Made by a program: the position numbers and the translations under genes. A DNA stretch of 64,000 nucleotides from assembly GCA_033762255.1 (NCBI GenBank), contig JANRLT010000007.1, positions 1-64,000 of the forward strand. Direction: 5' to 3'. How positions within the stretch are numbered: position 1 is the stretch's first letter; the number at the start of each line of letters is the position of its first letter. The notes beneath the pieces are model-generated. The model was not told the origin of the DNA. It saw nothing but the letters and a program-made list of their open reading frames with translations, and did no database searches. Origin of the DNA: Pirellulales bacterium. Its GTDB lineage: Bacteria > Planctomycetota > Planctomycetia > Pirellulales > JALHPA01. Below are positions 57,936 to 60,838 of the stretch, piece after piece.

Positions 57936-59612
57936 ATGGAGAGTCCCTTCGATCTATTTCGTAAAAATCAAAAATTTTGGCTGGGGACGCTGGCGATCAT
58001 GGCCATGCTGGCCTTTGTGGTCTTGCCCCCGCTCATGCAACTGATGCAAGAGCGCCAGTTGGATAACCAGCAATCCGACAGCCTAACAGTGGGCACCTGG
58101 AACAAAGGCACCCTGACCACGCCGCAATTGTACGGCTATGTGTCGGACGATGTGCTGCTCAATCGCTTTTTGTATTTGATCAAATTGCGCGCCCAGGCCA
58201 AGGCCGAAGCTCTCGCGAGTGGCGCCTCCGAAGCGCAAATCCCCTTGTTTGAGCAGATCTTTGGCCAGAATCCAAATTTTCGTCGGTATAGTTTACAGGA
58301 ATTTAATCAATTGGCCGGACCCCTGGCCCTTTCCGAGTTGGATTCGCTCTTGGTCATGCTCTACGACCGCTTGGCGACGGATATGGGCATCGAAGTTAGC
58401 GATGACACGGTCAATCAGTTCTTGGACAATTTTCGCGAAGCCACCGCCCAAACCAACGCCCTGCAAGCACCCGATAAACCCCCCACCGTGGGCGTGGTGA
58501 CCGCCGCGGAATTTGATGAGATTCGCGGGCTGTTGCAGCAGCAGCGGCCGTATTTTTCCAATGACTATATTTTTTCGCTGGTGCGTCGCTTATTGGCCCG
58601 ACACATGGCCTACGTCGCCACCCAAAAGCAACTGTTTTATTTTACCCCGCTGGACCGCTGGAATTTTTTTATGCGGCTGAACCAACGGGTGTCGCTGGCG
58701 GCAATTCCCATCCCGGTGGGCAATTTTTTAGACCAAGTAAAGACACCGGCGGGGGATGTGCTGCAAAAATACTTTGAAGAGCACAAAAATCGCTTGCCTA
58801 ATCCGCTGACGGGTGAACCCGGTTTTAAGGTTCCGCAGTTGGCAACGTTTCAGTATTTTCGCGTCGACTTTGCCGCGCTAGAGGCCGCCCAAAAGCCCTT
58901 GATCACCGACGCGGAGATCGAAAAGTACTATAACGAGCATAAAGATTTGTTTGTGAAGCGGGAGTTACCCGCCCTCCCCGGTCTTAACCTGCCACCCAGC
59001 GGCAATCCGGTACCGGGCGAAAACGCGCCCCCGGCCGAGGCATCGGGCAACTCCAGCCTTCTGCCGGGTCTCGAGAGCACACCCCCGGCCGCCGAAGCTG
59101 AAAAAACCGCCGAGCCGATGCCCCCTGCCGACTCCGCCAAAGCTACCGAACCACCCGCGTCGGAATCAAAAACGGCGGAACCACCCGCCGAAAATAAACC
59201 CGCTGAGGATAACTCCTCAAAAAATAACTCCACAGCTGAAAAATCCGACACGCCCCCGGCGAATCCGACTGAGCCAAAGACAACGGAGGATCCGCAGCCC
59301 GCTGCGGATGACGCAGCCCCCCCGGCAAAGTCTACCCCCGACAGCCCAGCGAAGCCCGACAGCCCAGCGACCCCCCCACGGATAAGCAATCCCGGCTGCG
59401 CGGTGCCGAAGGGAAAGTGCGGGTACTCACGGCGGCATTTTTACAAGAGCAATCGCCCCCAAACCCGGACGCCGTGCCAACTGCACCAAAGGCACAAGGG
59501 ACCGACGCCCCACCAGCGGATACACCACCGAATGCCGCCACACCTACCGACCCTGCTACGACATCCACGACACCCGCCGCGACAACCCCAGCAGCGGATA
59601 ATCCGCCAGTGA
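57936..59612 (+). CDS. SurA/PpiD-like membrane-anchored protein, N-terminal part of a frameshifted gene
   Basis: Likely folding factor or peptidyl-prolyl isomerase-like protein of the periplasm. ATG 57936 has AGGA 10 bases upstream (an ATG 6 codons earlier is less good). Residues 1-21 are basic/aromatic (FDLFRKNQKFW), then TM (LGTLAIMAMLAFVVLPPLMQ) and a SurA-N-like helical domain to about residue 330 (GTWNKGTLTTPQLYGYVSDD). A Pro/Ala/Ser-rich linker follows. This frame reads 558 codons, but after the C7 run at 59371-59377 it turns to Arg/His/Pro-rich sequence unlike the linker and stops at 59612. The proper continuation is the next entry, in the -1 frame. Together they would give 967 aa. See 59371-59378. 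Confidence 0.78.
   Translation: MESPFDLFRKNQKFWLGTLAIMAMLAFVVLPPLMQLMQERQLDNQQSDSLTVGTWNKGTLTTPQLYGYVSDDVLLNRFLYLIKLRAQAKAEALASGASEAQIPLFEQIFGQNPNFRRYSLQEFNQLAGPLALSELDSLLVMLYDRLATDMGIEVSDDTVNQFLDNFREATAQTNALQAPDKPPTVGVVTAAEFDEIRGLLQQQRPYFSNDYIFSLVRRLLARHMAYVATQKQLFYFTPLDRWNFFMRLNQRVSLAAIPIPVGNFLDQVKTPAGDVLQKYFEEHKNRLPNPLTGEPGFKVPQLATFQYFRVDFAALEAAQKPLITDAEIEKYYNEHKDLFVKRELPALPGLNLPPSGNPVPGENAPPAEASGNSSLLPGLESTPPAAEAEKTAEPMPPADSAKATEPPASESKTAEPPAENKPAEDNSSKNNSTAEKSDTPPANPTEPKTTEDPQPAADDAAPPAKSTPDSPAKPDSPATPPRISNPGCAVPKGKCGYSRRHFYKSNRPQTRTPCQLHQRHKGPTPHQRIHHRMPPHLPTLLRHPRHPPRQPQQRIIRQ
59371..59378 (+). other. C7 run at which the SurA/PpiD-like reading frame breaks
   Basis: Seven C followed by A. 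In the first frame it reads ACC CCC CCA CGG; moving back by one base at C-CCC-CCA gives CCC CCC ACG, which enters the frame of the C-terminal half (DKQSRLRGAEGKVRVLTAAF). Possible explanations: a programmed -1 shift or transcript slippage on the homopolymer, a recent one-base deletion from eight to seven C, or a sequencing error. Confidence 0.7.
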
Positions 59613-60838
59613 CCACCTCCCCCCAGACCACTTCCGCAGACAGCAATTCCACAGACACCCCGGCAAAGAATCCCCCCGCGACCACCGACGCGGCGGTTCC
59701 ACCCGCGGATGGCTCTAGCACCGGGGCCACGGACACGACCACCCAGTCCCCGACTAATCCGGCGACGAGTAATACAACCCCCTCTACTACGACTCCCCCC
59801 AATCCCGCCACGAGCCCCGCCCCTCCTAAACCGGTGGAATACCAGCCGTTGGCAGAAGTGCGGGATGAAATCCGCCAGCGTCTGGCACGGGAAAAGGCAT
59901 TTACGGAAAAAGAACGAATTTTGAACGCCTTGACCGAGAAAATGCTGGATCACGCCAATCTGCGCAAGGTCAAAGAACTGGACCATACCGATCCCACAAA
60001 GCCGTTCGTCTTTACCCCCTTTGCAGTCGAAGTCGTGGGCCAGGAAATGGCGATTGAGGGGCGAACCGTGACCTTGGTCTCGGCCGTGGACTTTGGCCGT
60101 AGCGAGCTAGCCCAGTCGCTGGTCAACGCGGGCGATAACCGGCAGTTTCCCCTCAGCCAGTTGGCCTTTAATCAAAAAATGCTAACCCCGTACTCTCCCA
60201 CGCGCAGCCAATCGGCGACCGTCGACTTTTTATTTTGGAAGACGGACGTGCAGCCCGAACGGGTCCCCGACTGGTCCGAGTCCGCCATCCAACAGCAGGT
60301 TACCACCGCCTGGAAAATGATCGAGGCCAAAAAACTGGCCACCCAGCAAGCCGAAACCTGGGCGGCCAAGGCCCGGGCCGAGAATCGCTCGATCATTGAT
60401 CTACATGGTCTGGATACGCAGATCCCCGCGGCGATAACGGTGTCGGACTTTGCCTGGCTCCAGCAGACAAATTTAACATCCTTTGATGAACCACCCCTTT
60501 ATGAAATCACCAAGGTTCCGGGCATCGACCAGGCGGGTGAAACATTTATGCAGACGGTCTTTTCCCTGCCGGTCAATGGTATCGGAGTGACCAGCAACCA
60601 ACCCGGCACGCAGGTGTACATTGTGCAAGTGACCAAAGCCCGTGATTTGGAAAAACTGCGCGAGCAATACTTGACCGAGAGTCGGTCCGAACAAACTTTT
60701 TCTCCTTACAATCGGGTGGGGGCCTTTGAGCGCGTCGAGTCGGAGCGGCAACTGTTTGAAAACCTGAAAAAGCAATATGGCGTGCAACTGACCCGCCCCT
60801 TGGGGACGGAAATGCTGGAAGAATGGAAGCTCGAGTAA
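59417..60838 (+). CDS. SurA/PpiD-like protein, C-terminal part of a frameshifted gene
   Basis: Open in the frame -1 to the first half, back through 59381. GTG 59417 is only the first possible start, with no Shine-Dalgarno, so independent translation is unlikely. Reads on from the Pro/Thr-rich linker to the PpiD-like C-terminal segment (KPVEYQPLAEVRDEIRQRLA; FTEKERILNALTEKMLDHAN) and a second domain (IEGRTVTLVSAVDFGRSELA) that ends WKLE at 60838. These match the family end: a helix with E-I-R-x-x-L-x-x-E-K-A after the isomerase-like region. I treat this and the previous entry as one gene. A true PPIase (parvulin) signature is not evident. Confidence 0.75.
   Translation: MRVLTAAFLQEQSPPNPDAVPTAPKAQGTDAPPADTPPNAATPTDPATTSTTPAATTPAADNPPVTTSPQTTSADSNSTDTPAKNPPATTDAAVPPADGSSTGATDTTTQSPTNPATSNTTPSTTTPPNPATSPAPPKPVEYQPLAEVRDEIRQRLAREKAFTEKERILNALTEKMLDHANLRKVKELDHTDPTKPFVFTPFAVEVVGQEMAIEGRTVTLVSAVDFGRSELAQSLVNAGDNRQFPLSQLAFNQKMLTPYSPTRSQSATVDFLFWKTDVQPERVPDWSESAIQQQVTTAWKMIEAKKLATQQAETWAAKARAENRSIIDLHGLDTQIPAAITVSDFAWLQQTNLTSFDEPPLYEITKVPGIDQAGETFMQTVFSLPVNGIGVTSNQPGTQVYIVQVTKARDLEKLREQYLTESRSEQTFSPYNRVGAFERVESERQLFENLKKQYGVQLTRPLGTEMLEEWKLE

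What the first reader, a model, noticed from the sequence alone, without database searches (positions are those of the whole stretch)
57936..60838. A SurA/PpiD-like gene is split by a frame change at a C7 run
Two overlapping frames, 57936-59612 and 59417-60838, together make a coherent 967-aa protein: TM anchor, SurA-N-like helices, Pro-rich linker, PpiD-like C-terminus. The break lies at CCCCCCCA (59371-59378), where slipping -1 on C-CCC-CCA joins the frames. After the run the first frame turns to Arg/His-rich sequence unlike the linker. The site is slippery, the frame is long in both parts, and the N-terminal half would still be made alone. So it may be a regulated -1 shift, phase variation by slippage, or an assembly error.
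Basis: partly seen in the sequence, partly recalled or inferred. Interest (0 to 1): 0.72.

Follow-up and report, generated by a model that had tools for sequence, protein, structure and literature searches.

The report
One-base frame break in chaperone gene
A conserved membrane-anchored folding-helper gene of a planctomycete bacterium is split here by a one-nucleotide frame break in a run of Cs, but all 67 related genomes in which both halves were checked carry the gene whole, so this is most likely an isolated sequencing/assembly slip or recent mutation rather than a regulated frame switch.

Summary
Frame 0 (57936-59612) and the -1 frame (open 59312-60838) are two halves of one gene, and C7 lies at 59371-59377. 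Linker composition and a motif shared with relatives place the switch at the later run. In 52 of 52 order-level relatives with both halves on one contig, and in 15 of 15 genomes checked from other families of the class, the gene is one continuous ORF. Of 20 relatives' linkers examined, only the same-family one has C runs of 7 or more, and it stays in frame. In 1.49 Mb of the host genome, of 337 coding C/G>=7 runs only the two in this gene sit at a frame break. RNA downstream folds no better than shuffles. A programmed shift or phase variation is not supported. The best reading is an isolated one-nucleotide indel, either a consensus error or a recent mutation; reads would decide. The gene encodes a PpiD-like anchored chaperone, single-copy across the class, in which a disordered linker sits where E. 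coli PpiD has its parvulin domain. That architecture is more interesting than the split.

The parts
57936..59370 (+). 5' part of the gene in frame 0: TM anchor (MESPFDLFRKNQKFWLGTLAIMAMLAFVVL), SurA_N/PpiD-like chaperone module (to about 58979), then first half of the low-complexity linker
   Evidence: aligned with 19 relatives; hhalign to E. coli PpiD residues 95-266, prob 97.8, E 7.9e-13
   Evidence: composition test
59371..59377 (+). second C7 run, in-frame C_CCC_CCA; most likely site of the one-nucleotide frame discrepancy
59378..59612 (+). spurious frame-0 tail, 79 aa, Arg/His-rich, ending the 558-aa frame-0 ORF
59312..60838 (+). -1 frame open region carrying second half of linker and C-module (about 59846-60835)
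59380..59451 (+). hydrophobic island in the linker (DKQSRLRGAEGKVRVLTAAFLQE), in the -1 frame directly after the run; counterpart islands at similar mid-linker positions in most relatives
59846..60835 (+). C-module, conserved in relatives, without stops or further frame changes

Best explanation
This is one gene for a membrane-anchored, PpiD-like periplasmic chaperone in which this one assembly shows a single-nucleotide frame discrepancy, most likely in the C7 run at 59371-59377 within the disordered linker. It is not a mechanism of the organism. Either the consensus is off by one nucleotide and the cell makes an ordinary protein of about 967 aa, or the sampled strain/population carries a recent slippage indel. 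In the latter case translation yields a 558-aa protein with TM anchor, chaperone module and half linker plus a 79-aa junk tail, without the C-module. Shown: split, homology, continuity in relatives, rarity in this genome. Inferred: error (about 0.55) somewhat likelier than true mutation (about 0.35).
For: Continuous ORF in 52/52 order relatives with both halves on one contig, and both modules in one ORF in 15/15 genomes from other families of the class; gene present in 98/99 class genomes. The -1 frame directly after the run matches the mid-linker island of relatives. Linker composition favours frame 0 up to the run by 19-24 nats. Of 337 coding C/G>=7 runs in 1.49 Mb only the two in this gene sit at a frame break; the HMM found 84 of 150 simulated one-base losses. 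No other lesion in either half. Literature: frame transitions that are singletons validated by homologs are expected to be sequencing errors or recent indels (PMC3711429); many apparent pseudogenes are assembly artefacts (PMC11017572).
Against: No reads or second assembly of the species are available, so error and mutation cannot be separated. The assembly looks accurate (one such break in 1.16 Mb of coding sequence), which makes an error at just this spot somewhat less expected. The generic codon model slightly prefers the switch at 59314 (4 nats), so the first C7 run is not excluded.
Confidence: 0.9

Rival explanations
1. Programmed -1 ribosomal frameshifting at C_CCC_CCA makes a fixed ratio of a short (558 aa) and a long (967 aa) chaperone.
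For: The heptamer is in the right frame; C_CC.C_CC.A is listed among motifs giving over 0.10% frameshifting without stimulators in E. coli (PMC4066793).
Against: No homolog has the break and no homolog outside the family has such a C heptamer in its linker. RNA downstream or around folds no better than shuffles: z +1.6, +0.8, +0.1. A site of the same type 54 nt upstream and hundreds of C7 runs elsewhere show the motif is routine here. CCN A-site codons are on average poor shifters.
Confidence: 0.03
2. Phase variation by slipped-strand mispairing at the C7 run switches the C-module on and off.
For: The run lies in a tolerant linker. The only same-family relative also has C-rich runs (C8, C9, C7) in its linker.
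Against: C7 is commonplace: 490 C/G>=7 runs in 1.49 Mb, 337 in coding sequence, none of those outside this gene breaking a frame detectably. The gene is a core periplasmic chaperone, not a typical contingency locus. Relatives in other families lack runs of 7 or more Cs there.
Confidence: 0.03
3. Transcriptional slippage in the C run restores the frame in part of the transcripts.
For: A homopolymer is at the junction.
Against: Known programmed transcriptional realignment sites are usually A/T runs of 8 or more (PMC3711429); the other coding C/G runs of 7 or more stay in frame here.
Confidence: 0.02
4. Two separate genes: a short anchored chaperone and an independently initiated C-protein from GTG 59417.
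For: A purine-rich AAGGG lies a few nt before GTG 59417 in the sequence.
Against: The C-module has no signal or TM of its own and would stay in the cytoplasm. The conserved island begins upstream of that GTG. All relatives fuse both parts. The AAGGG spacing is too short for a usual Shine-Dalgarno.
Confidence: 0.02

Closest known systems
E. coli PpiD (NP_414975, NF008054/PRK10788)
   Same: N-terminal TM anchor plus SurA-like chaperone module, profile-aligned over PpiD 95-266; C-module visibly collinear with the part after the parvulin domain (only weak hhalign support).
   Different: No convincing parvulin domain at the PpiD position; a 126-287 residue disordered linker sits there instead (nearly absent in one family). 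Far below the NCBIfam PpiD cut-off (17-33 vs 493 bits).
PpiD-delta-Parv (engineered E. coli PpiD without its parvulin domain, PMC2956729)
   Same: Same arrangement of anchor, chaperone module and C-terminal part; that construct keeps in vivo and in vitro chaperone function.
   Different: The planctomycete form is natural and usually has a long low-complexity linker with a short hydrophobic island.
Singleton frameshifted genes of GeneTack surveys (PMC3711429)
   Same: One genome with the break, homologs continuous, break validated by similarity.
   Different: Nothing specific; read data not seen.
dnaX-type programmed -1 frameshift
   Same: In-frame X_XXY_YYZ heptamer.
   Different: No stimulatory structure, no conservation; a short product is not conserved in relatives.

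Membership tests
Programmed -1 ribosomal frameshift gene | slippery heptamer in the correct frame | tested here: met
   C_CCC_CCA at 59372-59378 in frame 0
Programmed -1 ribosomal frameshift gene | frame break and site conserved in homologs | tested here: not met
   52/52 and 15/15 homologs continuous; no C heptamer in the linkers of other families
Programmed -1 ribosomal frameshift gene | downstream stimulatory structure | tested here: not met
   z-scores +1.64, +0.78, +0.12; pseudoknots not evaluated
Programmed -1 ribosomal frameshift gene | both products made | not testable with these tools
   needs proteomics or ribosome profiling
Phase-variable gene | repeat tract exceptional for the genome | tested here: not met
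   490 C/G>=7 runs in 1.49 Mb, 337 coding
Phase-variable gene | tract length varies between clones or reads | not testable with these tools
   no reads, one genome per species
Isolated indel / assembly error in a normal gene | single genome affected, homologs continuous | tested here: met
Isolated indel / assembly error in a normal gene | reads disagree with consensus, or strain resequencing confirms the mutation | not testable with these tools
   no read data
PpiD family (PRK10788) | TM anchor and SurA-like N-module | tested here: met
   SurA_N_3 or SurA_N_2 matches in 16-17 of 20 members at E<=0.1; hhalign 97.8% to PpiD
PpiD family (PRK10788) | parvulin (Rotamase) domain | tested here: not met
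   in 7 of 9 full-length relatives no Rotamase match over the cut-off; in 2 (28.1 and 28.9 vs 27 bits) the best stretch is only positions 2-21 of the profile or lies at the C-terminal end; E. coli PpiD control 116 bits
PpiD family (PRK10788) | score over the curated NCBIfam cut-off | tested here: not met
   17-33 bits vs 493
PpiD family (PRK10788) | post-parvulin C-terminal region homologous | tested here: inconclusive
   hhalign prob 8.6 and 1.7 only; collinear motifs by eye

The most novel reading that the evidence does not exclude
The family member of this lineage has evolved a lineage-specific -1 recoding or reversible slippage switch at the C7 run, making an anchored chaperone with or without its C-module. 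It would be confined to this species or its unsampled close kin, since all sampled relatives are continuous.
Probability: 0.06. Interest if true: 0.6.

Novelty: new member of a known kind. Interest (0 to 1): 0.17.

Why it matters
As a frame break it matters little beyond annotation: the two ORFs should be treated as one gene, flagged as frameshifted, until reads are checked. The gene is worth more attention. It is a class-wide planctomycete protein with a PpiD-like anchor and chaperone module in which a disordered linker stands where E. coli PpiD carries its (dispensable) parvulin domain. That fits the E. coli finding that PpiD works without its parvulin domain, and it offers a natural test of it.

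Tried and rejected
PRF stimulator search by folding three stretches downstream of or around the run, plus one between the two runs: no signal beyond shuffles. Retrieving other strains: genome contigs found nothing for the window protein and, with the same-family protein as query, only that MAG itself; one genome per species, so no same-species comparison. AlphaFold2 of N- and C-module with 1-2 sequences gave pLDDT 41 and 36: unusable, no fold search made. PDB profile searches found only weak PrsA/PPIase hits for the N-module and nothing meaningful for the C-module. Decay of the C-half: the window differs from near-invariant columns at 10/35 in the C-module vs 3/27 in the N-module (relatives 0-9 and 0-7). 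This is the highest C-module value but not clearly out of line, so I did not count it as pseudogene decay.

Full report
Observation. The sequence is as described. Frame 0 runs from ATG 57936 to the stop ending at 59612; the -1 frame is open from 59312 to 60838. A C7 run lies at 59371-59377 and, read in frame 0 as aCC CCC CCA, is an in-frame X_XXY_YYZ heptamer. Reading across it gives 967 aa.

Where the switch lies. Between 59312 and 59371 the frame-0 peptide (AAPPAKSTPDSPAKPDSPA) fits the linkers of 20 relatives far better than the -1 peptide (RSPPGKVYPRQPSEARQPSD): -38.7 vs -58.0 nats, and -40.7 vs -64.6 with the gene's own linker as model. After the run, the -1 frame reads TDKQSRLRGAEGKVRVLTAAFLQEQ. 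Most relatives have a comparable basic/hydrophobic island in mid-linker, for example SPQARRGAEQVFRLVSLQEE (L063), SSSVNARSPFRLASFLQEE (L081) and PFRLAAFQP (L080, same family). So the true frame is most likely 0 up to the second run and -1 right after it. A generic codon model slightly prefers the first run (4 nats), which I weigh less because the linker is atypical.

Relatives. I searched 57 order-level relatives with the C-module and the N-module separately. In all 52 genomes where both lie on one contig they share one continuous frame of 744-1021 codons without internal stops. The remaining five have contig breaks or missing hits. Across the class, 98 of 99 genomes hold the N-module, in open frames of 633-1151 codons. 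In 15 genomes from other families, both modules were found in one ORF each. Of 20 relatives' linkers examined, the 19 from other families hold no C run of 7 or more; the one same-family genome (L080) has C8, C9 and C7 in its linker and stays in frame. The split is thus unique to this genome among those examined.

Rarity in the host genome. In 1.49 Mb of the host genome there are 490 C/G runs of 7 or more; 337 lie inside coding sequence, and only the two in this gene sit at a frame change. A codon HMM trained on this genome finds 12 direct same-strand frame changes. The others end within about 34 nt of the upstream stop, as for neighbouring genes that overlap, or are stubs of under 10 nt. In simulation the HMM recovered 84 of 150 one-base losses at intact runs, so the rate of broken coding runs is around half a percent. 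The assembly is not generally homopolymer-poor, and C7 is not an unusual tract here.

Recoding. RNA downstream of or around the run folds no better than dinucleotide shuffles (z +1.64, +0.78, +0.12). In E. coli, C_CC.C_CC.A without stimulators is listed among motifs giving over 0.10% (PMC4066793), and CCN codons are on average poorer shifters than AAN and UUN. Genuine programmed sites are expected to be conserved (PMC3711429), and this one is not. Singletons validated by homologs were assigned by those authors mainly to sequencing error or recent indels. I conclude that the break is an isolated one-nucleotide event. Whether it is a consensus error or a real mutation needs reads.

What the gene is. 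The N-module aligns with E. coli PpiD residues 95-266 (hhalign prob 97.8, E 7.9e-13), that is, up to where the PpiD parvulin domain begins, and NCBIfam's PpiD model matches relatives over the same part only (within positions 10-269). SurA_N_3 or SurA_N_2 match 16-17 of 20 members. The position of the parvulin domain is occupied by a low-complexity linker of 126-287 residues, which is nearly absent in family f21 (L196-L199). Convincing Rotamase domains are missing in the nine full-length relatives scanned, while the E. coli control scores 116 bits. The C-module resembles PpiD after the parvulin domain by eye and position only; profile support is weak. E. coli PpiD without its parvulin domain keeps chaperone function (PMC2956729), so a working chaperone without that domain is plausible. 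The family is PpiD-like in the way it is built; I do not file it as PpiD because the parvulin feature and the curated score are not met.

Verdict. Observation confirmed; regulated shift and phase variation not supported; isolated indel or error most likely. Low interest for the split, moderate side interest for the protein family.

Noticed in passing
window 58980-59845; linkers of L062-L081: A short basic/hydrophobic island (for example ARSPFRLASFLQEE, often followed by acidic residues) sits near the middle of an otherwise hydrophobic-poor disordered linker in most Pirellulales-type relatives; function unknown, possibly a docking or client-mimic motif.
   Followed up: partly
L196-L199 (family f21): Members of one family have the N- and C-modules joined with almost no linker (633-650 aa), showing the linker is dispensable and that the parvulin position is empty.
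   Followed up: partly
window 59317-59323: Second in-frame C7 slippery site (C_CCC_CCG), 54 nt upstream of the reported one.
   Followed up: yes
window 59340-59377: 18-nt imperfect tandem repeat (GACAGCCCAGCGAAGCCC / GACAGCCCAGCGACCCCC) encoding DSPAKP/DSPATP directly at the C7 run; a spot where assembly or polymerase slippage is easy.
   Followed up: no
G051 contig C263:5915-6470 (minus strand): Another genome has its C-module matched in two pieces with different open-frame lengths, which suggests an isolated break at a different position.
   Followed up: no
L163 (G000:C50:31312-31707) and L164 (G000:C49:91887-92315): The host genome has two other ORFs (720 and 535 codons) matching the parvulin part of the PpiD model (positions 249-381), so parvulin-like domains are encoded elsewhere.
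   Followed up: no
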